Origin: Synechococcus sp. SynAce01
Lineage (GTDB): Bacteria > Cyanobacteriota > Cyanobacteriia > PCC-6307 > Cyanobiaceae
NCBI RefSeq assembly: GCF_001885215.1
Contig: NZ_CP018091.1
Span: 1,054,001-1,118,000, forward strand
DNA: 64,000 nucleotides
Direction of reading: 5' to 3'
Below the pieces are notes generated by a model. That model worked only from the letters and a program-made list of their open reading frames with translations. It was not told the DNA's origin and ran no database searches. The position numbers and the translations under genes are program-made. Within the stretch, counting starts at the first letter, position 1, and each line of letters starts with the position of its first letter. Positions 2,169-55,782 of this stretch are shown one piece after another.

Positions 2169-2782
2169 CGTTGGCGCAGGGACTCCAGTTCTCCCTTGCT
2201 ATTGCTCTCGGCGAGGGCGTCATAGCCACCGATCAACGCACCGTCGATGAACACCTGGGGCACGCGGCTCTCGCCCTCGGGCTCGATCACCAGATGGGGG
2301 ATGTCGAGGCTGCGCAACAGGCGAAGCGCGCGCCAGGAAAAGGGGCAGCCGGGGCGCACGGCGATGGTGACCCGCGGCTCGGCGGTTGAGCCTGACGAAA
2401 GGACCGCCGGCAGGTGCTCGGCTGGGACTTGGGCCATGGCCGGGGTCGGCAGCGGACCGTCGAGCAGGCCCACCAGCAGATCGGCGCCCTTGAGCACCAG
2501 GCTGCCAGGCTCCAGGTGGCCGCCCCACACCTGGCACTCGGAATCGGAGAGGCTCAGGTGCAAATGCACGCCTTGCGGGGCCACGGTGCCCTGCAGGGTG
2601 ATGATTTCCAGCTCTCCCTGGAGCACGGTGGGAGCAGCTTTGCCGGGGCACTGAAAGGCAGCCTGGGACAGGTTGCCCACCACACCGAGCACGAAGCCGG
2701 AGGCTCCCTGCTCCAGCGCCAGCTGCTCCAGCGCCAGGCGCAGGTCGCTGCCGGGCAGGAGATGGAGGGGCACAGAACGCAT
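2165..2782 (-). CDS. PPC (DUF296) domain fused to a glutaredoxin-like domain
   Basis: 205 residues in two parts. Residues 1-115 match the PPC/DUF296 fold: a family hallmark HLHLSLSD, then the GGHLEPGS segment. Residues 135-200 are a thioredoxin/glutaredoxin fold with RPGCPFSW, cis-proline VPQVFIDG and a final GGYDAL. The active site reads CPFS, with only the first cysteine of a dithiol pair, so a monothiol-type activity is expected. PPC domains in bacteria are of unclear function. The fusion suggests a redox-linked role, which is inference. It is translationally coupled to the downstream hypothetical gene. Confidence 0.85.
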   Translation of the reverse strand: MRSVPLHLLPGSDLRLALEQLALEQGASGFVLGVVGNLSQAAFQCPGKAAPTVLQGELEIITLQGTVAPQGVHLHLSLSDSECQVWGGHLEPGSLVLKGADLLVGLLDGPLPTPAMAQVPAEHLPAVLSSGSTAEPRVTIAVRPGCPFSWRALRLLRSLDIPHLVIEPEGESRVPQVFIDGALIGGYDALAESNSKGELESLRQR

Positions 2783-2812
2783 CGGCAGGGCTGGGACAAG
2801 CAGGGGGCAAGG

Positions 2813-3685
2813 CTACCGGGGAGGCGCCAGCGGCCTGCCTGCAAGCACGGGCAGCCGGGGATGCTGCAACTGGAAGCCCAGCCCATGCAGCCGCCGGTTC
2901 GACACCCGCCGGCCGGCGCCGGCGTCAGCGGCCGGGGCGGCCTCGGCCTCCCAGATCACCGGCTTGAGTCCGGCGGCACGGCAGGTCAGATCGATCAGGT
3001 CGCGCACGCTGATCGGCGCGTCATCCACCAGGTTGAACACCCCATCGAGGCCGGTCTCCAGCGCCAAGGCCAGGGCCGCCACCACGTCATCGCGGTGGAT
3101 CCAGCTGGTGAGCGCGGCGCCATTCCCCTGGCGCTGGCTGCCCGCCAGCGACCGGAAACGCTCCTGCAGCTCCCGCCCGGGTCCATAGAGCGCCCCCAAC
3201 CGCCAGATGGCGACGCGGCGGCTGGGGCTGCGGCAGCTCAACAACACGGCTTCGGCATCGCGCAGGATCTCGCCATGCCTGTCACGGGGCTGCAGCGGGG
3301 TGTCCTCCTCCAGCAGGCCGCCGGCGTTGCCGTACACCGAGCAACTGCTGGTGTACAGCAGCTGGTTGAGCTGGGGCAGCTCGCCCACCACGGCGGCCAG
3401 GGCCTGCATGCTGCGCAGAAAGGTGGCCTCGTAGCCGTCGGCATCCACCTGCCGCTCACCGCTGGGCGCCAGGCAGAACACGGCGGCCTCACTTCCCTGC
3501 AGGGCCTGGCGTAGCCCGATGGGGTCAGCGGCATCGAGCACCTGAACCGAATCGGCCACGGCGGCCAGCTCTTCGGCCCGATCGGCGCTGGTGGTGGTCA
3601 CCCGCAGCCAGTGCCGGCCTTGCTGGTGCCAATGGCGGGCCAGGGCCGTGCCCACATAGCCACAGCCAACGATCGTGATCCGCAT
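2813..3685 (-). CDS. NAD(P)-dependent epimerase/dehydratase family protein (YeeZ-like)
   Basis: 290 residues of the extended SDR family. The N-terminal Rossmann motif is VGCGYVGTALA (residues 6-16), followed by an acidic/basic cofactor-binding stretch. LLYTSSCSVYG contains the catalytic serine and the Tyr of an SDR (residues 107-119). Substrate cannot be assigned; the closest groups act on nucleotide-sugar-like substrates. It lies 30 bases upstream of the PPC-glutaredoxin gene on the same strand, so the three minus-strand genes 1524-3685 may form one operon. Confidence 0.8.
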   Translation of the reverse strand: MRITIVGCGYVGTALARHWHQQGRHWLRVTTTSADRAEELAAVADSVQVLDAADPIGLRQALQGSEAAVFCLAPSGERQVDADGYEATFLRSMQALAAVVGELPQLNQLLYTSSCSVYGNAGGLLEEDTPLQPRDRHGEILRDAEAVLLSCRSPSRRVAIWRLGALYGPGRELQERFRSLAGSQRQGNGAALTSWIHRDDVVAALALALETGLDGVFNLVDDAPISVRDLIDLTCRAAGLKPVIWEAEAAPAADAGAGRRVSNRRLHGLGFQLQHPRLPVLAGRPLAPPR

Positions 3686-3720
3686 CCGGGGTCATGCTGT
3701 GGGCGGCAAGCTAGGGGGCC

Positions 3721-4539
3721 ATGACCGGTCACGACCGCCAGTGGGAGCTGAACCGGCTCAACTTCGAGGGCCGCTGGTGCGGGACGAGCCGCTGGTACGA
3801 ACGCAACACCGCCGGTGTGCTGGATCTGATCACCCCCACCGCGGTGATCGAGAGCACCTGCTACTCCATCAGCTTTTCCGACCCCGACACCGGTCTGTGG
3901 GATGGCAGCGGCCTGCGCTTCGCTCCGGACGGCCGCCGCCGGCTGCCTCTCTGCCGCGCCACCTACAACAGTGGCGGCCAGTGCTGGCAATTCCGCGCCG
4001 CCGGCGGCCAATCAAGCCTGATGGTGGACGAAAAGCAGCCCCGATTCGGCCATGAACTGAATCTGTTCTGCGGCCGCTCCCGCTCGATGCTGGTGCTGCT
4101 CTACGCGCCGCTGGCACCAGCCCCGGCTGGTGGTCCCCTCTGGCGCCTGCAGAGCCTGGGGGTGGTTCCCTTCCGCTGCACCCTGGCGCCCGAACCGGAC
4201 CCTCCCCGGCCTGCGGCCAGCGACTGGCGGGCCCTGCTGGCGGAGGTGGAGGGCTGGCCCGGGGAGCTGGAGCGCCTGGAGCCCCGGCACTGGCCCTCAA
4301 CCGACCCCCAGCCGCAGCCCTGCGCACCCTTTCGCAGCCGTCAGTTCAGTGGCAACGACCTCTGCGCCGGCTTCGCCGATGGGCTGGTTTGTTCGCTGCC
4401 GGAGACGCTGCCGGCGAGGGCCTTTGCCTTGCAGGTGGGCTGCCGCCTCGATGGCGGGCACTTCAATCAGGTGAGCCTCCACTACGGCAGCCAACAGCAG
4501 CTCACGGCCTGGGAACTGAGGCGATTCCAGAGTCCCTGA
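3721..4539 (+). CDS. DUF3598 family protein
   Basis: 272 residues, cyanobacteria- and chloroplast-type DUF3598 protein with a lipocalin-like beta-barrel character. It starts MTGHDRQWELNRLNFEGRWCG, with family-typical NxxxFxGxWxGxxxWYE spacing, and ends with the paired strands VSLHYGSQQQLTAWELRRF. No catalytic residues are known for the family. It is divergent from the epimerase gene (35-base gap) and its 3' end overlaps the convergent MscS gene by 38 bases. Confidence 0.75.
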   Translation: MTGHDRQWELNRLNFEGRWCGTSRWYERNTAGVLDLITPTAVIESTCYSISFSDPDTGLWDGSGLRFAPDGRRRLPLCRATYNSGGQCWQFRAAGGQSSLMVDEKQPRFGHELNLFCGRSRSMLVLLYAPLAPAPAGGPLWRLQSLGVVPFRCTLAPEPDPPRPAASDWRALLAEVEGWPGELERLEPRHWPSTDPQPQPCAPFRSRQFSGNDLCAGFADGLVCSLPETLPARAFALQVGCRLDGGHFNQVSLHYGSQQQLTAWELRRFQSP

Positions 4540-14604: not shown

Positions 14605-16888
14605 TCACACTGCCACCGCCAGCTGCGGATAGAAGGCCCCCGGAATCGCCCGCTGCAGCCGCCAGCGAATCGCCATCGGGCGTTCGCCTTCGTGGCTCAC
14701 GTAGTCGGAAAAGCCGAGGCACAGAAACGGCAGCGTCACGCCACCGCGCCTGTTCTCCTCCCGCACCAACAACAGCACCCGGCTGCCGCACTCGCGGTGA
14801 TGGATATAACGCTGGCCGGTGGATGAGGCTTCGCGGGTGAGACTCTGGCTCTCCCAGTGGAACTCGCGGGGCGAGATGGCGTAGTCGTTGTAGCGGGTGG
14901 TGGGGGAGAACAAGCGCTCGGACTTCTTCAGGGTGATGAAGAACACGTCGCAGCGCGACGCCTCATCAAAAAAGACTCCCTCGCGGCCCGGGAAGGGGCG
15001 GGCCTCGTTCAATAACCCGAACGCCGCGAACACTTCGGCGCGGGAGTAGCGGCCGTGGAGCTTCAGGGGCAGCGGCGGGGCTGGTTCGCCAGCGGCCAGA
15101 GCCGGCCAGGCGAGCGGCGCCACCAGGAGGTCGGTGCGCTCCAGCAGCAGCGCGAACAGCTCCACCAGCTCGGCGCGAATGGCGGCGGCGGCCCAGAGCC
15201 GCACCAACGCCTCTGCGAGGGGCACATGGTTGCGGCCATTGCCCCAGAGCTGGGCCAGCAGCATCCGCCACTGGCGCTCGGCAACAGGATCGAAGCTCGC
15301 CGGATCGGGCGCCAGCGGCCGCTGCAGCTGATCCACCAGCCAGCGCAGGCGCTTGGGGTCGTCGAGATGAAGCAGGCCGCCGGCGATACCCCGCCCCAAC
15401 CGCTCCTCATCCGCCGTGGGCTCCCCGGAGGCTGCCCCTGCCCCCCACCCCAACTCCCGCTGCAGCAACGCCCAACACCCCGCCACCCGATAAAACTCCC
15501 CCAGCTCCATGCCGAGCCCCTCCAGCAGCGCCGCCAGCGAGCAGGCCCCGAGGCGACGGCATTCGGCCAGCAGCTGGGGCCGGCGGCTGGGCAGCGATTC
15601 GCGCAAATTTGAAAGCACCCGCTCCGTGGAGACGCGATCGAGCTGGAGGCTGCAGCCGGCGGGGAGGAAGGGGAAGCCGGCTTCGATCTGCTGGCGCAGC
15701 TGGTCGCGGCTGCCGCCGAGCAGGGCGCGGTAGCGGAGGTCGTGGCGGAAGCGGCGATGGGCCTGGCCGATGAAATCGAGCACCGTGAGGCAGCTCTTGC
15801 CAGGGCAGAGGCGCAGGCCGCGGCCGAGCTGCTGCAGGAACACGATCGCGCTCTCGGTGGGCCGCAGGAACAGCACGGTGTCGATCTCGGGGATGTCGAG
15901 CCCTTCGTTGAACAGATCCACCGCGAAGAGGACCTGCAGTTCACCAGACCTGAGGCGGCGGATCTGCTCGGCGCGCTCGTCGCGGGAGCTCGAGGCATCT
16001 AAGGAGGCGGCGCGCAGGCCGGCATCGGCGAACTTGCGGGCCATCCAGCCGGCGTGCTCCACGCTCACGCAGAAGCCCAGGGCCCGCATCGTGTGCAGGT
16101 TGGTGATCTTGCTCTCGAGTTCGCGCAGGATCAGGCGCAGGCGGGCGTCGTCGGCGGTGTAGAGGTTGGTGAGCGCCTCGCTGGCATAGCCGTTGCGGCG
16201 CCATTCGATCTGCGAGAGGTCGGTGCCGTCGTGGAGGCGCGAGCCGTAGTTCGGCGGCGGTGTGGCCCCCGAACCAATGGAGGATGTCGAGCCCGTCTGA
16301 TCGTTCGGGAGTGGCGGTGAGGCCGAGCAGCAGGGACGGCGCCAGGTGGGCCAGCCAGCGCTCGTAGCTGGAGGCGGCGGCGTGGTGGAACTCATCAACG
16401 ATCACCACGTCGAACGTGCCCGGCGCCAGGCCCGCCGGATCCATCGCCGCGAGCGACTGCACCGAGGCGAACACATGGCGCCACTGGCCTGGACGCTGGC
16501 CATCCACCAGCAGCTCACCGAAGGAGCCATCGCGCAGCACCTGGCGGAAGGTGGCGGCCTGGCGCCGGGCAGGAGCGCCGTGGATCGGATCTCCGAGAGC
16601 AGCCGGGCGGAGGGATGCAGCAGGTTGCCCGTGGAGATGGCCCGGGGTGCATGGCTCTGGAGCAGGCCCACCAGTTGGTTCACCAAGGCCAGCTGGTGCT
16701 CAGGGGTGGCGCCACCGCTCAGGTGCTCAAGGGCAATGCGGGCAAGACCCGCCAGGTGCCGGGCCAACAGGCGCGGGGCTTCCTGGGGATCCAGGCCGAT
16801 GGTTTCGACCAGGGCTTCCTGGAGTTGGCGCAGCTGCTGCTCTAGGCCCTCGGTGAGGAGTTGCTGGTAGAGGCCTGGGGGTGGGGCC
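14605..16888 (-). pseudogene. DUF3427 helicase-nuclease gene, broken
   Basis: A long reading frame of 597 codons (14605-16398) ends with the DUF3427 C-terminus and includes helicase motif VI-like QQLGRGLRLCPGK. Upstream, helicase motif II DEFHHA and motif III LTATPERSDG lie in a second frame (near 16280-16540), and an N-terminal part LYQQLLTEGLEQQL lies in a third (to about 16888), with an in-frame TAG just before it and no start codon. I could not find a Walker A motif between the N-terminal part and motif II, so an internal deletion is likely. It is the probable source of the array A fragments. Intact relatives are PLD-helicase-DUF3427 proteins, often in defence islands. Confidence 0.8.
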
Positions 16889-16972
16889 TAGTCGGGTATG
16901 GGAAACCAGCCTCCTGAACTGCTGTAGTTGCTGTGGATCCCCAGCCAGGAATGGGACTGGATTGTTGCGATG

Positions 16973-16990
16973 TTATCCGAATCCGGATAA
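16973..16990. promoter_or_regulatory. Palindrome just before a small ORF
   Basis: TTATCCG and CGGATAA form a perfect inverted repeat with a 4-base spacer, ending one base before an ATG at 16992. It may be an autoregulator operator. Confidence 0.35.
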
Positions 16991-16991
16991 A

Positions 16992-17180
16992 ATGAAAGCC
17001 AGCATTGACCAACAAGGCCGGATGCTTGCTCCAGCAACAGATCGGCTAAGTGAAGGCAAGATCCGATCTGTTTCTTATGCGGAAGCAAAAGCGGCAGCTG
17101 GGGATTTATGCGGAATCTTCCAATTACAAGTTTGCCTGAGGCAGGCTGATCCTCTGTTTACGCGTTTGATATGTTGGTAA
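16992..17180 (+). CDS. Possible AbrB/MazE-like antitoxin remnant
   Basis: 62 residues from ATG 16992. The N-terminus MKASIDQQGRMLAPATDRLS resembles the swapped-hairpin start of AbrB/MazE-type antitoxins (typical MKxTIDxxGRxxxPxxxR). The rest shows no family pattern. It is preceded by a palindrome, which is consistent with autoregulation. It marks the start of the AT-richer block. Could equally be chance coding. Confidence 0.3.
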   Translation: MKASIDQQGRMLAPATDRLSEGKIRSVSYAEAKAAAGDLCGIFQLQVCLRQADPLFTRLICW

Positions 17181-17203
17181 GTTGTTCCACTGAGAATTTA
17201 GCA

Positions 17204-17653
17204 ATGCAAGAATGCCACTCAAAGCTAATCAGTCATCATGGAGCTTCTCTGTTTGTTGATATTCTACTTGGCTTGGGCCTCCTCACGATTTGGGTAAACT
17301 GGAAGAACGGATACATCCAAGCCTTCTTTGACTCACCAGACACTAGAAAGAAAGCGGCGATCATTTCTCTCTTTATACTATTAGCTCCGACCCTTCTTGA
17401 TCTTGGACTTTCCTTAAAAGAAGATGTTCTTCTTCTTGGCCCCCTGCTTTCGGCGGTGATTGCCCTAATGATTCGCGAAGTGTTCGCACAACACAAAGAG
17501 CAGCAGGAGATTAGGAGCAAAGTGCTTGCAGAGCTTCAAGCCAACATTAGAAGTATCAAGTCTATTGAGGACAACTACAGTTTTTTAAATGCCGTATCCG
17601 AGGGAAATGTAACATTTGATCCCTCTTGGCCAAAGTCCCTCAAAGCGGTATGA
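17204..17653 (+). CDS. Membrane protein of unknown function
   Basis: 149 residues from ATG 17204 (an ATG at 17171 is possible). Two hydrophobic stretches (LFVDILLGLGLLTIW and AAIISLFILLAPTLLDLGL) plus a third LLLGPLLSAVIALMI, then a charged helical tail (QHKEQQEIRSKVLAELQ). No known domain. Its AT-richer codon usage differs from the core genes and suggests recent acquisition. Confidence 0.6.
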   Translation: MQECHSKLISHHGASLFVDILLGLGLLTIWVNWKNGYIQAFFDSPDTRKKAAIISLFILLAPTLLDLGLSLKEDVLLLGPLLSAVIALMIREVFAQHKEQQEIRSKVLAELQANIRSIKSIEDNYSFLNAVSEGNVTFDPSWPKSLKAV

Positions 17654-17665
17654 AAGAGTGAAGCC

Positions 17666-17896
17666 ATGAAGAAGAATTATACAAAAGCAATTGCCAAGCG
17701 AATCTTCCCTCTAGAATCACTTAGGATGGTAGAAGAACTTTACTGCATAATGGAAATTCTTATTCTAAAAGCTGATGAAGGAGTGGACGGTTATGCTGAC
17801 TTCGAGCAGGCACTACCTCAGTTCACAATGGTCAATGCGAAGATTTTAGACGTTGCCCAAGACTTAGGTATAACCGTTATGGGTGATGCGGAATAA
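17666..17896 (+). CDS. Small hypothetical protein
   Basis: 76 residues, 12 bases downstream of the membrane-protein gene. Helical, with the segment SLRMVEELYCIMEILIL and an acidic C-terminal half. Same codon bias as its neighbour; the two are probably co-transcribed. No function can be assigned. They may be a two-gene defence or TA pair, which is speculative. Confidence 0.5.
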   Translation: MKKNYTKAIAKRIFPLESLRMVEELYCIMEILILKADEGVDGYADFEQALPQFTMVNAKILDVAQDLGITVMGDAE

Positions 17897-18008
17897 GGAT
17901 ATGCTGAATACTATTCAGCCATTAGACTTTCCGTGCTTGGCCCTGGCTCACAACAAGATTCAGCGGACGGACGGCGTTTGTTCCTTGGTCAATATGTGTG
18001 GTTGTTCC

Positions 18009-18028
18009 GCCGCTGATCTTGAGCGTTA
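18009..18028. repeat. Imperfect direct repeat flanking the R-M operon (left)
   Basis: GCCGCTGATCTTGAGCGTTA here matches GCCACTGATCTTGAACGTTA at 20710-20729 at 18 of 20 positions. The pair brackets the restriction-modification operon. Confidence 0.4.
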
Positions 18029-18856
18029 GGTGGAGCCGGGTAATGGCCAGAGCAACCTCATTTTCGGATACACTTCTTCTCTTTCTCTATAGAGCAGAAT
18101 ATGGCTTGGAAGGAGAGTCAGCTGCCACTGATTAGGCGCAGGCAACGACTGAACTGCCGAGAGGAGAAGGCTACGCACACTCATGCCACTTTCTTGAATA
18201 ACTATTATCCGGGAAGCCGCAAAGTCAGCGTGAGCTTGTTCGTACAAGCGTCTTTCTTCGGCTGTGTCACCATTCCTATTTCCTTGAAATCTGATCCAGT
18301 ATGGGGTGTGCCTGCAAACCAGTCTAAGCAACTCTAATACATCGTATGTACCCGGGGGGATTTCCGAGCATGGATATTCAGGATCAACAGGATAAAGGAC
18401 ATGCCAGTGGGTATCTGCAAGCTGGGTCTTGTCTCGTCTTCTTCCTGGATCGTTAGGGCCAAATCCGCGAGAATTCCAGCTTGGTGAATAGAGAGATATC
18501 ATATGTGATTCGGGTTTAAATGCATCCCATGTGTGCGCAAAATGAAGGCAACGAAAGCTGACCTCGCCTGGTGAGATTCCAATTCTTCCCTGTAGCTGTC
18601 GGCGATGCTTCTCCAACCTACTCTTCGCGCTGTCATCAGCCTTGCCGATATAGACAACCAAGCCGTTATGCTGCAAACCATAGATCCCAGGCCTCTCTTC
18701 TACTGAAGTCAGATTTAAATCATGCAAGGGCAAAGGAGCAAGTAGATCGAAGTCAGAAGCTAACTGCTGAAAAAGAGGAGTCGCAATATCAAACTCGAAT
18801 AAGCCACATCCATCTGAAAATCTATCTACGAGTGTCACGATAAATGCCCTAGGCAA
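18026..18856 (-). CDS. Eco29kI-like GIY-YIG restriction endonuclease
   Basis: 276 residues. GIY-YIG core: PGIYGLQHNGLVVYIGKADD at about residues 54-73, then a helix with SRLEKHRRQL (catalytic Arg region) and a downstream Glu/Asn region. This layout matches the Eco29kI family, which cuts CCGCGG. It follows vsr with a 22-base overlap. AT-rich codon use like the rest of the operon. Specificity is inferred from family and from the adjacent methyltransferase; it cannot be proved from sequence. Confidence 0.85.
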   Translation of the reverse strand: MPRAFIVTLVDRFSDGCGLFEFDIATPLFQQLASDFDLLAPLPLHDLNLTSVEERPGIYGLQHNGLVVYIGKADDSAKSRLEKHRRQLQGRIGISPGEVSFRCLHFAHTWDAFKPESHMISLYSPSWNSRGFGPNDPGRRRDKTQLADTHWHVLYPVDPEYPCSEIPPGTYDVLELLRLVCRHTPYWIRFQGNRNGDTAEERRLYEQAHADFAASRIIVIQESGMSVRSLLLSAVQSLPAPNQWQLTLLPSHILLYREREEVYPKMRLLWPLPGST

Positions 18857-19305
18857 GAATCTACGGAATTACTAGTCCCTTTTAGGTGCTGGAGAGCCTT
18901 GTAGATGGATTCTGCCGCTTCATTAGGATTTAGAAATATTGTTGAGGTCCAGATTCTAATTACTGTCCAGCCTTCTTGCATAAGCCTTTGGTTTACCTGT
19001 CTATCTCGTTCGATATTCCCTAGAATTTTACTACACCAAAACCCAGCGTTGGTTGGGAAGAGATCTTCGAGTTTTGATAGTTTTCGGACCTTGTGCTCAT
19101 TTCCATGCCAGAAGTCTCCATCCACAAAAACTGCAAGTTTATATTTCATGATCGATATATCAGGCCTGCCGTAAACGTTCTTAGTATCGACTCTGTATCG
19201 AATGTCCATCCTGTGTAGAGCTCTTCTAAGGATAAGCTCTGGCGTTGTATCTCGCCTCTTAATCTTCCCCATGATCCGGGATGTCGTGGCAGCATCTCTT
19301 GTCAT
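18835..19305 (-). CDS. vsr: Very short patch repair endonuclease
   Basis: 156 residues. Vsr nicks next to T:G mismatches formed by deamination of 5-methylcytosine. Motifs: SRIMGKIKRRDTTPELILRR, GRPDISI, FVDGDFWHG and a Cys/His region for the structural zinc. Sits between the methyltransferase (6-base gap) and the endonuclease (overlap), as in many C5-methyltransferase systems. Confidence 0.93.
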   Translation of the reverse strand: MTRDAATTSRIMGKIKRRDTTPELILRRALHRMDIRYRVDTKNVYGRPDISIMKYKLAVFVDGDFWHGNEHKVRKLSKLEDLFPTNAGFWCSKILGNIERDRQVNQRLMQEGWTVIRIWTSTIFLNPNEAAESIYKALQHLKGTSNSVDSCLGHLS

Positions 19306-19311
19306 AAGAGG

Positions 19312-20553
19312 CTACATTCCAGAGTGAAATCTCATATGAAGCCCAATTTCTTTAGCGAGCTGGACGGGAACGGCATTTCCAATATGTCTCATTGCGTGCG
19401 AACGCGCTCCAAGAAACTCATAGTCATCTGGAAACGTCTGAATGCGTGCACTTTCACGTACGGTCATATATCTTAGTTTTCCATCATTAAAACGAATCAT
19501 GGCTTCACCACCACATACGCCATGGACTCCAGCTTTAATTGTTTTACCCGGGCGATCAATATCTGATCCCGTGTGACCTGGATAAGAACGAGCACCTGGT
19601 ATTCCTATATGATTTAAATAGTCTGGATGTGGCTTCCCATCGATAGGTTCTGGCAGTCCCTCGATAGCATCTCTAACTGTTTGCCAAGGCTCAAGTCTTG
19701 GCGAGAGGAGATTACTTTGTTCGGATGAGCTTTTTGCCTTGCTTATGCTTCGACTTGGTGGAGCGATAAGGTTATGACGATCCCAGTAATCACCAGAAAC
19801 AAACTGAGAATAATGAAGCGATGCCTCAGAATGAGTGGGAGTAATCGGTGGCAGTGGACAGTCGGAGATGTCCGAACGAACAGCCATTAGAACAACACGT
19901 TTGCGAATTTGAGGAACACCGAAGTCAGCCGCATTCACAAGTTGCCTGGTAACGTAATAATCAGGCTTACAGTCTCGTGAAATGCGGACTCTGATTCGTT
20001 CAGCATGCTCAGCCCAGGTTTCATTTTTCCTTGGGATGCACACTGGATCTCGAAGCTGCATTTCTACGTAATCAAAGTAAGGAGCAAACGACTTTCTTAA
20101 TAGGCCGGCTACATTTTCAAACAAAACCAATTTAGGCTTGCAACGCCTAACCAAGGCAAGAGCAGCGGGAAACATATTCCTGCTATCATTCATTCCAGCA
20201 TGAATGCCTCCAAGAGAAAATGGCTGACATGGTGGCCCACCAGCAAGTAGATCCAATGAATCATAGTTCTCAATAGCATCAAGCTCAATATGACGAACAT
20301 CATGGAGCATGACAGCATTATCTTTCCATGCTTGATTTTTGCTGCCGTGAATTGCCCAGCAGCGAGCATTATGTCTTAAGGTGTCACACGCTTTAGAGTC
20401 AAACTCAACTAAAGCCGAATGATTAAAACCAGCTGCATGCAGCCCCAATGCCATTCCCCCACCACCGGCAAACAGCTCAAGTGAGCGGAGCCTTGACTGG
20501 GAATCAGGTTGCCCAACAGAGGGCGTGGGGGATGCTTGGAGGACCATGCGCAT
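19312..20553 (-). CDS. DNA (cytosine-5) methyltransferase
   Basis: 413 residues. Motif I LELFAGGGGMALGLHAAGF, motif IV AGGPPCQPFSLGG with the catalytic Cys, motif VI ENVAGLL, motif VIII region QIRKRVVLM, motif X GNAVPVQLAKEIG. First gene of a three-gene operon with vsr and the GIY-YIG endonuclease. Closest architecture is that of CCGCGG-type methyltransferases accompanying Eco29kI. Clearly AT-richer than flanking DNA, a sign of transfer. Confidence 0.93.
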   Translation of the reverse strand: MRMVLQASPTPSVGQPDSQSRLRSLELFAGGGGMALGLHAAGFNHSALVEFDSKACDTLRHNARCWAIHGSKNQAWKDNAVMLHDVRHIELDAIENYDSLDLLAGGPPCQPFSLGGIHAGMNDSRNMFPAALALVRRCKPKLVLFENVAGLLRKSFAPYFDYVEMQLRDPVCIPRKNETWAEHAERIRVRISRDCKPDYYVTRQLVNAADFGVPQIRKRVVLMAVRSDISDCPLPPITPTHSEASLHYSQFVSGDYWDRHNLIAPPSRSISKAKSSSEQSNLLSPRLEPWQTVRDAIEGLPEPIDGKPHPDYLNHIGIPGARSYPGHTGSDIDRPGKTIKAGVHGVCGGEAMIRFNDGKLRYMTVRESARIQTFPDDYEFLGARSHAMRHIGNAVPVQLAKEIGLHMRFHSGM

Positions 20554-20709
20554 ATGGTAAGGCCTCCAACAAGCCCTCCAGCAGAGGGGAGAGCTGTCCT
20601 TGCAGTGGCCTTGAGGATGTTATCCTAGACAGACTCTAGAAGCCCACTTAGCATCAAGATCCACCGTGCGGGGCTAACGCTGTTGTGTAAATGCGTAGTG
20701 ATTCGTCCA

Positions 20710-20729
20710 GCCACTGATCTTGAACGTTA
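20710..20729. repeat. Imperfect direct repeat flanking the R-M operon (right)
   Basis: Partner of 18009-18028. It overlaps the start of the array B HIT fragment region. On the minus strand the same bases encode DQWLD-like residues in the readthrough tail of the HIT fragment, so coincidence is possible. Confidence 0.4.
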
Positions 20730-20759
20730 ATGAATCCAGTCTCAATATCCCTTCTTCCC

Positions 20760-21200
20760 CCAATCACCCCAGGCACTACACCCCGAAGCTCCTCACAATC
20801 ACCCTCCCGCCTTGGAATCAGATGCCAATGTGCATGAAAAACCGTCTATCCAGCCTCCTCGCCTGAGTTCAGCCCCACGTTCCAGCCGCTGATCGTGGCG
20901 TCCTGGGCGCTCAGCTGCTCCCTCCTTAGCTTCAACAGCTCCACCACGGCGTTTCACTCCGGCTGGTGCAGCTCCAGGGAGTTGGCCACATGCCGACGCG
21001 GGACCACCAGGCTGTGCCCCTCGCTCACGGGATAGGCATCGGCGATGCAGATGGCAAGCTCGTTCTCCAGCAGCACCCGGCCGCTGCCCTCCAGTGCGCA
21101 GAACACGCAATCCACCTCACGTCTGGCGTCGCTGGCCTGCACACCGCGGAAGCAGAGTCCCTGCAGGTTGAGTATGGCGTCGGAACCCCCCAGGTTCCGA
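20760..21200 (-). pseudogene. HNH-HIT gene fragment, array B copy 1 (HIT part with two stop codons)
   Basis: Minus-strand translation gives the end of an HNH domain (GGSDAILNLQGLCF) and then a HIT domain: VDCVFCALEGSG, LLENELAICIADAYPVSEGH, SLVVPRRHVANSLELHQPE. A TGA at 20954-20956 replaces a Trp codon and a TAG at 20846-20848 replaces a Gln codon. Between and after them the frame is clean through FHAHWHLIPRREGD, the HIT triad motif. Nucleotide hydrolase activity is therefore lost. Confidence 0.75.
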
Positions 21201-21300
21201 CGCTCCCATAACCAGGGTCAAGCTGGATGATCAATGTGCCAGTGCGCATCAATCCGGCGTATAACAAGCGGGAAAGATGGTATTCAAAGCGTCTCGAGAA

Positions 21301-22149
21301 ATGGCTACCGACTGGTCAAGAGAGGAAGTTGCAGAAACCGTGGCAGACTACTTCGCCATGCTTGCTGCTGAACTCTCCGGGGTTCCTTACAATAAAGCAG
21401 CTCACCGGCGCGCGCTGATTAAGCGTCTTTCAGGTCGTTCGGAGCAGTCCGTTGAGTTCAAACATGCGAATATCAGTGCGGTGCTGATTGACCTGGGATT
21501 CCCTTATATTACTGGTTACAAGCCTCGATCCAACTATCAAGGCCTGCTGCATGACATTGTTTCCGAGAGACTTGTATCTGATAGCCAGCTCCTGAATGTT
21601 GCGGCCGCAGACGCTGACAGGTCGATCGTGGTGCCGGAAGTTGAAGACATTCTTAGAGTGCTCACCAAACCGCCAGCCATGCAACCACGAGACCAGGAAC
21701 CTAGTAGAGAAAGCCTTCAGGCAACGAGGACATGTATCTCAGTCAACTACTTGGAGAGAGAAGCGCGTAATCGCTCGCTTGGTACTGCTGGTGAGCTCTT
21801 TGTCTTGAACTTTGAGCGTGCAAGGCTGATCAACCTTGGCAAAGAGAGGCTTGCCGAGAAAGTCGAGCACACATCGCAAACGCGGGGGGATGGGACCGGG
21901 TTTGATATTCTCTCGTATGAGGAGACTGGCGCCGATAGGCTCATTGAAGTAAAAACAACAAAATATGGGCGAGAAACTCCGTTCTTCGTATCCAGAAATG
22001 AACTTGCGGTGTCTGAATCAGAAGCATCTCACTATCATCTCTACCGTTTGTTTGGATTCAATGTGAAGCCTCGTCTTTTCACTCTTGCTGGTGCCTTCTC
22101 GGAATCATGCAAGCTTTCTCCTTCAAGCTATCTTGCAACCGTTATCTGA
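21301..22149 (+). CDS. DUF3883 domain protein
   Basis: 282 residues from ATG 21301 (MATDWSREEVAETVADYFAM). The N-terminal half is helical; the C-terminal DUF3883 domain (about 165-282) has GTGFDILSYE and RLIEVKTTKYG, a PD-(D/E)xK-like D...E-x-K arrangement. Such proteins are common in phage-defence islands. Moderate GC content, lower than core genes. It lies between two HNH-HIT fragments; the next fragment begins about 30 bases after its stop. Its role is unproven. Confidence 0.8.
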   Translation: MATDWSREEVAETVADYFAMLAAELSGVPYNKAAHRRALIKRLSGRSEQSVEFKHANISAVLIDLGFPYITGYKPRSNYQGLLHDIVSERLVSDSQLLNVAAADADRSIVVPEVEDILRVLTKPPAMQPRDQEPSRESLQATRTCISVNYLEREARNRSLGTAGELFVLNFERARLINLGKERLAEKVEHTSQTRGDGTGFDILSYEETGADRLIEVKTTKYGRETPFFVSRNELAVSESEASHYHLYRLFGFNVKPRLFTLAGAFSESCKLSPSSYLATVI

Positions 22150-22179
22150 TCTCTTGGATGCTGGTCTACAGAGCACATC

Positions 22180-22800
22180 TCAATAGCTCTGATGCTCCGC
22201 AATCACACCCCGAACCCCACCCCGCAGCTGCTCACAATCCCCTTCTCGCCGCGGGATCAGATGCCAATGGGCATGGAACACTGTCTGCCACGCCGCCTCT
22301 CCTGACTTCAGCCCCACATTCCAGCCGCTGATCTCGGCATCATCAGCCGCGAGCTGCTCCCGACGGCGCTTGAGCAGCTCCACCACCGCATTCCATTCCG
22401 GCTGGTGCAACTCCAGCCCGTCGGCCACATGGCGCCTGGGGATCACCAGGCTGTGCCCCCTCACTCACCGGGTAGGCATCGGCGATGCAGAGCGCCAGTT
22501 CGTTCTCCAGCAGCACCCGGCTTCTGGTCTCCTGCCTGTGCTGGTAGCTGGCGAGGAGTCCGCGAAAGTCGGTGCGATCCGTGTCGCGCTTGCCGGCATT
22601 GCATGGGCATTTCTGGGGATGATGTGATCCACCTCAAGGGCGCACTGGCCCGGGTGAGCACGCGGTACTTGATCGAGCCACTGATCGGCGTGCGGTGGCG
22701 GCTGCGCCGCCCAACAGGCGTTCGTGGTCATGGGCGTAGCTGGTCAAGCCGTTGAGGGTGAGTCGTCGATCTGGGTCACGTTCTCCCCGACGATCCTGGA
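22180..22800 (-). pseudogene. HNH-HIT gene fragment, array B copy 2
   Basis: Carries most of a HIT domain (HSLVIPRRHVADGLELHQPE, FHAHWHLIPRREGD), an HNH core LEVDHIIPRN near 22620-22660 and a piece of the N-terminal domain LTLNGLTSYAHDHERLLGG (to about 22800). An extra G in the codons for VSEGH shifts the HIT frame near 22462. Several further frame changes separate the parts. No full protein can be made. Confidence 0.75.
22677..22692. repeat. 16-base repeat, copy 1
   Basis: GCCACTGATCGGCGTG occurs here and again at 27536-27551. Its first 10 bases also match the repeat at 20710. Confidence 0.35.
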
Positions 22801-52501: not shown

Positions 52502-53287
52502 ATGAACGACCTGGACACCTGGGATCAGCTGCTTCGCCTGCATGTGGATCAAGCCGGCAGGGTGGATTACGCCGGCTGGCTCAGCCACCATCCCCACACC
52601 CTGAGCCACTGGCTGGCTGCACAGACAGCCGAAACCGATGGACGCCAGGAGCATCTGGCCCACTGGATCAACCTTTACAACGCCTTCACCATCCAGGCCG
52701 TGCTCAAGGCCTACCCGATCGCCTCGATCCGCCCGACGCTGCTGGGCCTGCCGAACTGGATCGGCTTTCTGGCCTTCTTTCAACGCAAGCGACACAGGCT
52801 TGCGAAGCAATGGATCAGTCTGGCCTGGATTGAGAACCGGATGTTGCGTCAGCAGGGCGATCCACGCATTCACTTCGCCATCGTCTGCGCGTCATTGGGC
52901 TGCCCGTTGCTGCGCAACGAGGCCTACCGGCCCGAGCTGGTGGAGCAACAACTGGACGACGACCTGAAGCGCTTTGTCAACAATCCAAGCAAGGTGCGTT
53001 ATGATCCAGAACAGAACATTCTATTTTGCAGCAAGATTTTTCAGTGGTACAAAGCCGATTTTCTTGACGAACATACTTCGCTATCGCATTACATCTTGCC
53101 CCATCTGACAACAAGCTCCAAGCCCATCAACAAACAAAATGCTGAATTAAATTCTCAGCCAAGCACGGAGACAAAGACTGAGCCAAGTATAGAGACCACA
53201 AACAAGCCAAGGAGTCACCAAAACAATGAGCCACACCTGTCCTTTCTCCCCTATGACTGGAGCCTGAATCAGCGAATGTCTTCATAG
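52502..53287 (+). CDS. DUF547 protein with an unusual C-terminal insert
   Basis: 261 residues from ATG 52502. DUF547: AHWINLYNAFTIQAVLKAYP, WISLAWIENRMLRQQGDPRI, HFAIVCASLGCPLLRNEAYR, and KIFQWYKADF. Near residues 200-245 a low-complexity Ser/Thr/Asn/Lys/Glu segment occurs before the final FLPYDWSLN, a family-like end. Overlaps the convergent glycosyltransferase gene. Confidence 0.87.
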   Translation: MNDLDTWDQLLRLHVDQAGRVDYAGWLSHHPHTLSHWLAAQTAETDGRQEHLAHWINLYNAFTIQAVLKAYPIASIRPTLLGLPNWIGFLAFFQRKRHRLAKQWISLAWIENRMLRQQGDPRIHFAIVCASLGCPLLRNEAYRPELVEQQLDDDLKRFVNNPSKVRYDPEQNILFCSKIFQWYKADFLDEHTSLSHYILPHLTTSSKPINKQNAELNSQPSTETKTEPSIETTNKPRSHQNNEPHLSFLPYDWSLNQRMSS

Positions 53288-54006
53288 AAGCGCTTCATCC
53301 GGCCTGGTGGCATGCCAAGGCCCCAGAGAATACCAATGGAGAGATACATCACAACGGCTTTACAGGTTCCCCACTGCCGAACCCGCCGGTCTGAACTGAA
53401 CACCACCCGGCGGATCAGTTTGATCCTCCCCCTTTTCAGCAACTTGAAGCAAAGATCCCCATCTTCCAGAAGTGGAAGCGATTCATTGAAGCCCCCAACA
53501 CTCCAGAATGTGTCACGCCGGGTGATCATCACCTGATCACCGAACAGAAGCCGGAACCCCCTAAGGAACAGATGGGGGCGAAACAGAAGCGGCGCCCCAT
53601 GGGTTTTCAGCAGGTTCAGAGTGGAAATCAACCAGCGGGTCTTGCCATCAGACCGCATCAACGACACGAAGCCAGCGCAGGCGATTGAATCATCCGCCAA
53701 GGCACCCCTGGCCACGCTCACCAGATCGGTGGGGATGCGGGTGTCGGCATGGAGAAAACAGAGGAGGGTGCCGCTGGCACGGCGGGCACCTTCGTTCATC
53801 TGAATGGCCCTGCCGGCCGTTGAGGTCTGTACAACTGTGATCCCCGCTCCATGGGCGATGGTTGTGGTGGTGTCCGTGCTGCCTCCATCCACCACCACCA
53901 CGTCCCAGGCTGGCGGGTTGAGGGCCTGCACCGTGCGCAGGGTGCCGAGAAGCCAAGCCTCCTCATTCAGGGTTGGAATGATGATCGAGAGACGCTCCAT
54001 CGCCAC
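53269..54006 (-). CDS. Glycosyltransferase family 2 (TIGR04283 type)
   Basis: 245 residues. SIIIPTLNEEAWLLGTLRTV, VVVDGGSTDTTTTIAHGAG, LLCFLHADTRIPTDLV (the DxD-like HAD) and FGDQVMITRRDTFWSVGGF. Single-domain GT2; sugar substrate unknown. Fits with the acyltransferase next to it in surface polysaccharide synthesis. Confidence 0.9.
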   Translation of the reverse strand: MAMERLSIIIPTLNEEAWLLGTLRTVQALNPPAWDVVVVDGGSTDTTTTIAHGAGITVVQTSTAGRAIQMNEGARRASGTLLCFLHADTRIPTDLVSVARGALADDSIACAGFVSLMRSDGKTRWLISTLNLLKTHGAPLLFRPHLFLRGFRLLFGDQVMITRRDTFWSVGGFNESLPLLEDGDLCFKLLKRGRIKLIRRVVFSSDRRVRQWGTCKAVVMYLSIGILWGLGMPPGRMKRFYEDIR

Positions 54007-54009
54007 TGC

Positions 54010-55170
54010 CTAGGAGCTGGTTGCCAGGCCAAAACAACAACGGAGTGGACCGAGTCGCCGGATGATGCCCTCGTACACAGCAAAACTCAACAGCAGGGAA
54101 AGAATACAGATGATCAGAAACTTGGCTGTGATGCCAAGCTCAAGCGGCACCACAAACCAGGCCACCACCACCAGCAGCGGCTGATGAACCAGGTAGAGCG
54201 GCAGCGCGGCCCCACGTCCATAGCGAAGGATGGGATGGGGGGCTATCAGGAAGCGGCGCGCCAACGCCAACGCAGCCAACACGGCGATCCAGCTGTTAAA
54301 ACCACGGAAAGCCTGGACAAGAATGAATGCCATCGAATAGCCAGACGGCGGCATCGATGGACTGAGCCCTAACCACACAACGCTCGCCATGCAGGGAACA
54401 GCAAGGCTGAGGATCGTCCATCTCTGCTTGTCCAGCACAAGCAAGAAGCCTGGCTGGCAACAGAATAAATAGCCGTAAAAGAAATAAAGAAGATAAAGCG
54501 TCAGATTGGCCCAGTCGTCATAAACGTTCTGGAAGCCCGGCCAACCCGGACGCAACAGGGCTTCTGACAGCATCAGCGGCAGAGCCAAGAGCAGGAGCGA
54601 AGACCATGACACTGGCCAGGACATCAAGAGTGAAAGACGGCCATGGCTGCGATCATGCTGCAGCCATAACAGCACCGGAAGGCAGAGGAGCGAGATCACC
54701 AACAGATAAGCCAGAAACCAGAGATGGGCCCACTCAAAATGACCGACTGGCCGAATTCCATCAAAAAAGTGGGGATAAAACTGCAGGTAGTTCTGGTTCG
54801 ATCCCGTGTCCTGCAGCTCGTGCAGATAAACCTGTGGAGGCACCAGCAACAGAATGCCAACCAGCAGGGGAACAAGCAACCGCCGCAGGCGTTCCCGCAG
54901 GTAGCGCGCAGGGCTGCGCAGCTGCAGGGAGTGCCAGCAGGCAGAGCCAGCCAGAAAGAACAACAACGGCATGTGCCATTGATACAGGAACTGAACCAGG
55001 CCAGCCAAGGCTGCACTCTTTTGGGGGTTGACCACATAGAAGACACCGAGTTCTCCGGTGTAGAATACGGCCGCTGCATGGAACGGGATCAACAACAACA
55101 CGGCGATCAGCCTGGCCCAGTCAAGAGCCTGTGATCGCTCAGGTGTGTGGCTTGCCTGGCTGCTGATCAT
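54010..55170 (-). CDS. Acyltransferase 3 family membrane protein
   Basis: 386 residues, about ten helices. LDWARLIAVLLLIPFHAAAV with the conserved Arg and His, and MPLLFFLAGSACWHSLQLRS are the acyltransferase 3 landmarks. Probably O-acetylates a surface glycan. Three bases before the glycosyltransferase start on the same strand, so the pair is likely one operon. Confidence 0.88.
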   Translation of the reverse strand: MISSQASHTPERSQALDWARLIAVLLLIPFHAAAVFYTGELGVFYVVNPQKSAALAGLVQFLYQWHMPLLFFLAGSACWHSLQLRSPARYLRERLRRLLVPLLVGILLLVPPQVYLHELQDTGSNQNYLQFYPHFFDGIRPVGHFEWAHLWFLAYLLVISLLCLPVLLWLQHDRSHGRLSLLMSWPVSWSSLLLLALPLMLSEALLRPGWPGFQNVYDDWANLTLYLLYFFYGYLFCCQPGFLLVLDKQRWTILSLAVPCMASVVWLGLSPSMPPSGYSMAFILVQAFRGFNSWIAVLAALALARRFLIAPHPILRYGRGAALPLYLVHQPLLVVVAWFVVPLELGITAKFLIICILSLLLSFAVYEGIIRRLGPLRCCFGLATSS

Positions 55171-55782
55171 GAGTGCGTGATCATGGGCATGGCCCTAGAA
55201 GCCTGGAAGAACAATTCAAGAAGAAAAGTTATCACTTGAGCAAGGGAACACTATCGCCATAAAGATGATCTCGACAGCGATCTTTCTGTTACGAAGACGC
55301 TCAAAGTCAATGAACCAACACGTGAGCTGATGAGTCGGCTGGCTTCCCAAACAACTGCAAGTGCCTGCTCAATCTTCTCTTTCATTCCCGCCTGACTGAG
55401 CCTAGCAAGCCAAACAGCATGACTTGCCCATTCGCCATGAATGCTAGGTGCTCATTGCCATGAATCCTTTCTTTCAGCCAGATTTCGATCCAACTGATTT
55501 TTTTCAGCTTACTGCCATGGGGCGTGCCGATGACCCTCGTGGTCTACAACAGAGAAGATCATCGAGGAGATCGAAATACTCATAGTGCAGATTTTTATGG
55601 ATGTTTCTATCTATCACAGGTTGCCAGCTTCTTGCTTTGGCTAGCATTTTGATGCAGCACAGGTCATCCACTAGTTGCCATGACTGGCGATTGAGTGCAA
55701 TCCTGAAAATGTCCATTTCCGAACCTAAAGACGAAATAGCACTACTAGGGTCTGGTTGATTCAGATCGAGAGATTGTTGATC
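55171..55782. other. Long AT-richer intergenic region
   Basis: More than 600 bases without a clear conserved gene. It is AT-richer than the neighbours and contains T-rich runs (for example near 55498-55505). The only candidate coding part is the weak frame at 55504-55716. I see no RNA gene or repeat. Confidence 0.4.
55504..55716 (-). CDS. Weak candidate small protein
   Basis: 70 residues from ATG 55716: MDIFRIALNRQSWQLVDDLC, CIKMLAKARSWQPVIDRNIH, KNLHYEYFDLLDDLL. Protein-like but without a recognised family. The frame extends upstream to 55920 with poor coding quality. Confidence 0.28.
   Translation of the reverse strand: MDIFRIALNRQSWQLVDDLCCIKMLAKARSWQPVIDRNIHKNLHYEYFDLLDDLLCCRPRGSSARPMAVS

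What the first reader, a model, noticed from the sequence alone, without database searches (positions are those of the whole stretch)
18009..20729. R-M operon with Vsr bracketed by an imperfect 20-base direct repeat
The AT-richer operon (methyltransferase, Vsr, GIY-YIG nuclease) is flanked by sequences matching at 18 of 20 bases (18009 and 20710). It may mark the borders of a transferred segment. It predicts CCGCGG methylation.
Basis: partly seen in the sequence, partly recalled or inferred. Interest (0 to 1): 0.5.

Follow-up and report, generated by a model that had tools for sequence, protein, structure and literature searches.

The report
Restriction-modification operon in integron cassette
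A three-gene bacterial defence operon in a cyanobacterium turns out to sit inside a movable integron cassette: the repeats seen at its two ends are integron recombination sites, and the same cassette is found, cut at the same points, in another genome; it is a clear new example of a known kind of system.

Summary
The two 20-base repeats (18009, 20710) are the right-hand ends of two integron attC sites. A covariance model of attC, built from 12 other sites of this genome with the window's sites left out, finds two sites in the window and no other: 17942-18034 and 20643-20735. The crossover points predict two adjacent cassettes: 17131-18025 (two small ORFs) and 18026-20726 (methyltransferase, Vsr, GIY-YIG nuclease, facing against the attC sites). 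Both units recur in other genera of the same family: the operon cassette in a Lake Pavin cyanobacterial genome (2700 bp, 81% identical inside, chance level outside), cassette 1 in an array with six attC sites (895 bp, 87%). The genes form an Eco29kI-like type II system with Vsr; CCGCGG specificity is plausible but untested, and CCGCGG is not significantly avoided. No integrase gene match lies in the window, and the genome's only full-length integron integrase lacks 22 residues at the integron-specific segment, so the cassettes may now be locked. New member of a known kind.

The parts
17131..18025 (+). cassette 1, with a 160-aa ORF (17171-17653, no family match), a 76-aa ORF (17666-17896, no family match) and attC1
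   Evidence: 895-bp homologue, ungapped, 87% identical, in the cassette array of another genus (L168); 28-31% identity (chance) in the 100 bp outside the two borders
17942..18034 (+). attC1 (attC of cassette 1; left border of the operon cassette; crossover G^TT between 18025 and 18026)
   Evidence: 52.8 bits, E 3e-11, with a model that did not include it; its R'' box reads CTCAC where the homologue in L168 has CTAAC
18026..20726 (-). cassette 2: the methyltransferase-Vsr-nuclease operon, genes opposite to the attC orientation
   Evidence: same unit in L042 (2700 bp, 81% identical); blastn homology 18022-20726 ends at the predicted crossover on the right and 4 bases past it on the left
18026..18856 (-). 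GIY-YIG restriction endonuclease, Eco29kI-like; its stop codon TAA (18026-18028) is made of the first three bases of the cassette
   Evidence: PF09517 31.5 bits against a cut-off of 30.8; six active-site residues conserved; overlaps the Vsr ORF by 22 nt
18835..19305 (-). Vsr mismatch endonuclease
   Evidence: PF03852 80.8 bits (cut-off 27), TIGR00632 117.4 bits (cut-off 97.85)
19312..20553 (-). C5-cytosine DNA methyltransferase (the second ATG, at 20547, matches the start in L042)
   Evidence: PF00145 178.6 bits; PDLC03307 MTase_II 365.8 bits; GGPPCQPFS, FENV, QIRKR and GNAVP present (the motifs are recalled)
20643..20735 (+). attC2 (attC of the operon cassette; crossover between 20726 and 20727)
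   Evidence: 31.8 bits, E 1e-5 with the same model; of 21 other sites compared, its loop is most like that of L042's attC (score 0.67; next 0.48; median 0.39)

Best explanation
Shown: the operon fills one integron gene cassette (18026-20726) bounded by two attC sites, next to a second cassette (17131-18025), with no integrase match in the window, i.e. a two-site attC cluster lacking an integrase (CALIN). Inferred: an integron integrase, acting on the folded bottom strand of attC, excised the cassettes elsewhere and inserted them by G^TT crossovers at a locus that in a sister genome holds another restriction system. Inferred: the genes, which face away from any array promoter, are transcribed from a start of their own between attC2 and the methyltransferase; the methyltransferase marks host DNA, the GIY-YIG nuclease cuts unmarked DNA, and Vsr repairs the T:G mismatches left by deaminated 5-methylcytosine. 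The stop codon of the last gene is supplied by the TTA at the cassette border, so the gene ends exactly there wherever the cassette lands (shown as sequence, inferred as function). The confidence given is for the cassette identity and the restriction-modification nature; for insertion here rather than decay of an older integron in place I hold about 0.5.
For: (1) A model trained on 12 attC sites of this genome, window sites excluded, finds two sites in the window and no other up to E 10. (2) The 21-pair stem shows covariation over 27 sites, of which attC1 is one and attC2, just under the cut of that call, is not (92.9% of cells paired, 15 pairs with double changes; at most 42.7% paired when slid by 1-3 columns; the alignment was fitted to the model and holds its 12 training sites). 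(3) The operon unit recurs in L042 (Lake Pavin MAG) at another place, homology ending at the predicted crossovers. (4) The left border G|TTAGGTGG occurs in four genomes with four different left flanks, two of them carrying only a 185-bp remnant. (5) Cassette 1 recurs in an attC array in another genus, with exact borders. (6) The genome carries integron integrase genes and arrays, as do relatives (26 of 151 family genomes, own included, at E<=1e-60). (7) Family matches of all three proteins and catalytic residues of the nuclease.
Against: attC2 is weak: 31.8 bits, R'' box TTAGC instead of the usual CTAAC, and its fold is no better than that of shuffled sequence (z about -0.1; attC1 -1.1 and -1.8). 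attC1's R'' box has also changed (CTCAC). The genes face against the attC sites, unlike ordinary cassettes. No promoter-like site above chance was found (3 found, 5.3 expected). The only full-length integron integrase of the genome lacks 22 residues at the integron-specific segment, so present mobility is doubtful. No empty site was found: no match listed for the three same-genus genomes covers 16902-17130. L042 has an attC at one end of the unit only.
Confidence: 0.94

Rival explanations
1. The repeats are target-site duplications or ends of another mobile element (insertion sequence, integrative element) that brought the operon in.
For: Direct repeats at both ends of an AT-rich segment; other tyrosine recombinases exist in the genome.
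Against: The repeats are parts of 93-nt structured sites that recur in the genome and in relatives, some of them beside integron integrases; homology outside the borders drops to chance at the attC crossover, not at the ends of the 20-mer; no transposase or integrase family match among the eight window proteins scanned and no tyrosine recombinase match in the window.
Confidence: 0.02
2. An old chromosomal integron was here and lost its integrase gene and most cassettes (decay in place), rather than cassettes being inserted at a new place by an integrase elsewhere. Compatible with the cassette identity.
For: Both attC sites are worn in R''; decayed integrase copies exist elsewhere in the genome.
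Against: No integrase match within the window; in same-genus G083 the locus has the same outer neighbours but a different island and no attC match. The roughly 230 bp before cassette 1 show no attC match.
Confidence: 0.25
3. The two cassettes arrived together as part of a larger island by homologous exchange at a defence hotspot; the cassette history is older. Compatible with the cassette identity.
For: The locus is variable: G083 has a type ISP restriction enzyme and a PIN-domain gene in the same gap, beside a mREase_IV-like helicase.
Against: Cassettes 1 and 2 have homologues in different genomes, each without the other and with exact borders, so they have been independent units.
Confidence: 0.25

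Closest known systems
CALIN elements (attC clusters lacking an integron integrase) and integron gene cassettes
   Same: Two attC sites of one type, cassette borders at G^TT, foreign composition, homologous cassettes elsewhere; off-target insertion by a distant IntI is one proposed origin (PMC8618304, passages seen; PMC12444791, passages seen).
   Different: Three-gene cassette read against the attC orientation; worn R'' boxes.
Defence cassettes of chromosomal integrons (Vibrio, Xanthomonas)
   Same: Anti-phage genes stored as cassettes; in Xanthomonas restriction-modification systems are among them (PMC12444791 and PMC12409362, passages seen; the latter cites Darracq 2025 and Kieffer 2025, which I did not read).
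   Different: Here in a cyanobacterium, in a cluster without an integrase gene, and a complete type II system with Vsr.
Eco29kI restriction-modification system (pECO29, NC_001537.1)
   Same: C5 methyltransferase 44-47% identical; GIY-YIG nuclease with the six active-site residues (PMC1952068, abstract and passages seen).
   Different: Order M-V-R instead of R-M, a Vsr gene added, nuclease 276 aa against 214 with a longer C-terminal part, 26% identity.
Vsr-M-nuclease operons such as that of Ruegeria sp. YS9 plasmid NZ_CP102414.1
   Same: The same three kinds of protein side by side.
   Different: Order V-M-R, 45% (M) and 33% (nuclease) identical; on a plasmid, attC not looked for.
Cyanobacterial integrons
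   Same: Cyanobacteria are listed among integron hosts and have an attC model of their own (PMC8618304 and PMC8352920, passages seen); Synechococcus sp. is in a species key of PMC3108266 (passages seen).
   Different: In the listings seen (20 of 119 papers, 8 of 8, none, 10 of 384) no title or abstract start describes this cassette or the integrons of picocyanobacteria.

Membership tests
integron gene cassette | attC site with paired R''/L'' and L'/R' arms and conserved GTT crossover | tested here: met
   both sites match the held-out model; attC1 GTTAGGT fits the recalled GTTRRRY, attC2 GTTAATG fits in part; R'' boxes changed in both
integron gene cassette | unit recurs elsewhere with borders at the crossover | tested here: met
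   cassette 2 in L042, its left border also in L170 and L171 (185-bp remnants); cassette 1 in L168
integron gene cassette | gene in the orientation of the attC (usual, not obligatory; recalled) | tested here: not met
   M, V and R on the minus strand, attC sites on the plus strand; the same relation in L042. Cassette 1 is in the usual orientation
integron gene cassette | excision and insertion by an integron integrase | not testable with these tools
   needs a recombination assay; the genome's full-length IntI lacks 22 residues
CALIN | at least two attC sites and no integrase gene nearby | tested here: met
   two sites in the window; nearest match to the integron-integrase model about 120 kb away (C1:1195587, below the cut-off, another tyrosine recombinase), nearest recognisable decayed copy about 170 kb away (C1:1244822)
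Eco29kI-type restriction-modification system | GIY-YIG nuclease of the Eco29kI family with its active site | tested here: met
   PF09517 31.5 bits, cut-off 30.8; no NCBIfam match for this protein; Y59, Y69, R80, H84, E116, N128 align with Y49, Y76, R104, H108, E142, N154 of R.Eco29kI
Eco29kI-type restriction-modification system | recognises CCGCGG | tested here: inconclusive
   no methylation data; CCGCGG observed/expected 0.85, z -1.5, rank 23 of 64 palindromes in 206 kb of this genome; 0.78 (8 seen) in 27 kb of G083 and G048, which lack the methyltransferase
Vsr endonuclease | curated family score | tested here: met
   TIGR00632 117.4 bits, cut-off 97.85; PF03852 80.8 bits, cut-off 27

The most novel reading that the evidence does not exclude
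The operon is a self-maintaining cassette: facing backwards with its own promoter and with its stop codon built from the recombination site, it is expressed wherever it lands, punishes its own loss as restriction systems can, and so spreads between picocyanobacterial genera and steadies cassette clusters, while this genome's integrase, having lost its integron-specific helix, no longer moves cassettes and has locked the operon in place.
Probability: 0.25. Interest if true: 0.6.

Novelty: new member of a known kind. Interest (0 to 1): 0.45.

Why it matters
It gives an exact test case (same cassettes, same borders, different genomes) of how defence genes travel between picocyanobacteria through integron cassettes, in a group of major primary producers. 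It also shows how short 'direct repeats' around an accessory operon can be recognised as attC sites, and points to a natural integrase without the segment thought to allow single-strand recombination.

Tried and rejected
CCGCGG avoidance as evidence for specificity: not informative. Rfam scan of 16800-22600: one chance match only. Promoter and terminator scan: 3 promoter-like sites against 5.3 expected, 5 terminator-like against 3.3. Folding of the single attC sites as DNA: z -1.1 and -1.8 for attC1, about -0.1 for attC2, too weak to prove anything by itself. Relatives of the methyltransferase in 73 plasmid and 21 phage records are all below 60% identity, those of the nuclease in 3 plasmid records too; no close mobile source. 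The methyltransferase was found in 1 of 151 family genomes at E<=1e-40 (own only); the nuclease in 5 of 400 at E<=1e-10: own, the L042 genome, one distant homologue (G256) and two fragments; the 160-aa protein of cassette 1 in 2 of 400, own and G149. For an empty site, the same-genus search (4 genomes with own) listed no match in 16902-17130; G083 has another island instead. Right of the cluster, the HIT-like sequence (first copy from 20758) has a counterpart beside the G083 island, so I take it as chromosomal.

Limits of counts: the whole-genome attC count (18 sites and 2 opposite-strand matches) is a lower bound, since 150 of 1400 candidates were scored and one search lists further sites. 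The attC look of the left flanks in L170 and L171, and of the site before cassette 1 in L168, is read by eye; model R1 does not report them. That G366:C42 is the contig of L042 is inferred from matching coordinates. That the host is a cyanobacterium follows from its photosystem I genes (2 PsaA_PsaB matches; of 14 control genomes only Synechococcus elongatus has any); that it is a picocyanobacterium of the Cyanobium/Synechococcus kind is my inference from this, the L042 record title and genome sizes.

Full report
What was claimed and what is there. Both are real. Locally the repeat is beyond chance (none in 20 shuffles of the surrounding 7 kb), although in 64 kb two shuffles gave 16 and 10 such pairs, so the repeat needed independent support.

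The repeats are attC sites. Each ends in CTGATCTTGARCGTTA, and a complementary arm (AACAAGATTCAGCGG; ATCAAGATCCACCG) starts 61 bases upstream of that core in both. With up to two mismatches the core occurs 17 times in the 2.75-Mb genome, 14 of them on the minus strand, against once for the pattern read backwards. Many of these lie in runs; the run at C1:166-177 kb and the pair at 1241 kb are near integron-integrase genes, the run at 2116-2120 kb is not. I aligned 12 of those other sites, leaving out the two of the window, built a covariance model with 21 base pairs, and searched. In the window it reports 17942-18034 (52.8 bits, E 3e-11) and 20643-20735 (31.8 bits, E 1e-5) and nothing else up to E 10. 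Over 27 sites from this genome and three others (the 12 training sites and attC1 included, attC2 just below the cut) the stem shows covariation: 92.9% of cells paired, 15 of 21 pairs with changes on both sides, against at most 42.7% paired when partners are slid by one to three columns; this alignment was fitted to the model, which favours it. Folded singly, the sites are not convincing.

The cassettes. Integrases cut at G^TT (recalled; standard integron biology). That predicts a cassette 1 ending at 18025 and a cassette 2 at 18026-20726. Cassette 2 holds the operon, all genes on the strand opposite to the attC orientation. Its first three bases, TTA, are the stop codon (TAA) of the nuclease gene on the other strand. 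The same holds in L042.

Independent tests of the borders. (a) L042, contig JAPLIC010000018.1 of a Lake Pavin cyanobacterial MAG, encodes the same three proteins (83, 66 and 83% identical) beside a PIN-domain gene and TIR-like proteins, a different neighbourhood. The alignment runs from 18022 to 20726. The units are 2701 and 2700 bp, 81% identical, while the 100 bp outside the two borders match at 30 and 28%. L042 carries its own attC at the methyltransferase end (51.1 bits) and none reported at the other; the loop of that attC is more like attC2's than that of any other of 21 sites compared (score 0.67, next 0.58). (b) In two genomes of another genus (G111, G059) only 185 bp of the nuclease end were found, but they begin at the same G|TTAGGTGG, and the left flanks differ from each other, from the window and from L042. 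(c) Cassette 1 recurs in G149, again another genus, on a 9-kb contig with six attC sites by the model; the 895-bp units align without a gap at 87%, and the flanks match at 28 and 31%. Its left border in the window is therefore 17130/17131.

The locus. In same-genus G083 the outer neighbours (a helicase scored as mREase_IV on the left, HNH-HIT-like sequence on the right) are the same, but 5.6 kb of other DNA lies between, with a 998-aa type ISP restriction enzyme and a PIN-domain gene and no attC match. The place thus accepts different defence genes. I found no empty site.

What the proteins do. The nuclease is just over the Pfam cut-off for Eco29kI (31.5 against 30.8), has no NCBIfam match, and keeps the six active-site residues named for R.Eco29kI, five of which were tested by mutation. 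The methyltransferase has the C5 motifs and is 44% (tblastn) to 47% (MAFFT) identical to that of pECO29. Vsr is above both curated cut-offs. Of the 16 best methyltransferase relatives in other genomes (L042-L057), 14 have a Vsr-like stretch somewhere on the locus and 6 a nuclease-like one, and a Ruegeria plasmid has all three side by side, so the trio is a recurring association. Recognition of CCGCGG is a reasonable inference (I put it near 0.6) and is not shown: CCGCGG is only slightly and not significantly rarer than expected (87 observed, 102.6 expected in 206 kb).

Is it still mobile? The genome has one full-length integron integrase (C1:183049-184035; TIGR02249 400.5 bits, cut-off 265). 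It lacks 22 residues, between DLAQG and WQWVFPQ, that the four relatives aligned with it have. That is the place of the integron-specific insertion (I2 helix) that docks the extrahelical bases of attC (PMC7790495, abstract and passages seen; the placing on this sequence is mine). A decayed second copy has a deletion at the same place, out of frame as I read it, and a third is broken. A segment spanning the junction finds matches in 86 of 400 family genomes (the printed list is cut short). Most printed matches begin after the junction, as expected if the insertion is present; besides the own gene, four (in G174, G103, G267 and G207) cover the query from residue 1 or 2 to 88 with spans of 237-291 nt, and I did not examine these, so I cannot say that the shortened integrase is unique. 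The changed R'' boxes of both window sites point the same way: past mobility is well supported, present mobility doubtful.

Against what is known. Integrons in cyanobacteria, attC clusters lacking an integrase, off-target insertion, and restriction or methylation genes in cassettes are all in print (passages seen). This is therefore a new, well-resolved member of a known kind. What seems less usual is the complete three-gene type II system in one backward-facing cassette, and the integrase without the I2 segment.

Noticed in passing
G000:C1:183049-184035 (L035:13050-14036, minus) and C1:1244822-1245404 (L036): The full-length integron integrase lacks 22 residues at the place of the integron-specific I2 segment; a decayed second copy has an out-of-frame deletion at the same place. 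A natural I2-less integrase would be a test of what that segment does.
   Followed up: partly
G000:C1:166316-177490 (L034, L035): Main attC array of the genome; the integrase gene lies beyond it and reads towards the array (same strand as the attC orientation), and two equal-scoring 331-aa tyrosine recombinases lie between (a third at 260250).
   Followed up: no
window 20758-21092 and 22197-22532: A HIT-domain gene stretch is present twice (78-86% identical, about 1440 bases apart), the first copy apparently disrupted, with a NO VEIN C-terminal protein (PADLOC candidate PDC-S36, 21277-22149) between them.
   Followed up: no
window 14605-16901: Helicase gene (mREase_IV-like, 1058 aa in G083) is broken here; about 820 bases present in G083 are missing around 16543-16556.
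   Followed up: partly
L169 (G256:C22) 126-216 and 2207-4149: A distant methyltransferase-nuclease pair (45% and 34% identical) lies on a contig with an attC site near its start, so related systems may also travel as cassettes; no attC was reported after the pair.
   Followed up: partly
L168 (G149:C73): The array holding the cassette 1 homologue also carries an Mrr-type restriction enzyme and a Gp49-like/antidote pair.
   Followed up: no
window 53000-55500: A second AT-richer stretch with strong AT skew (up to 0.43).
   Followed up: no
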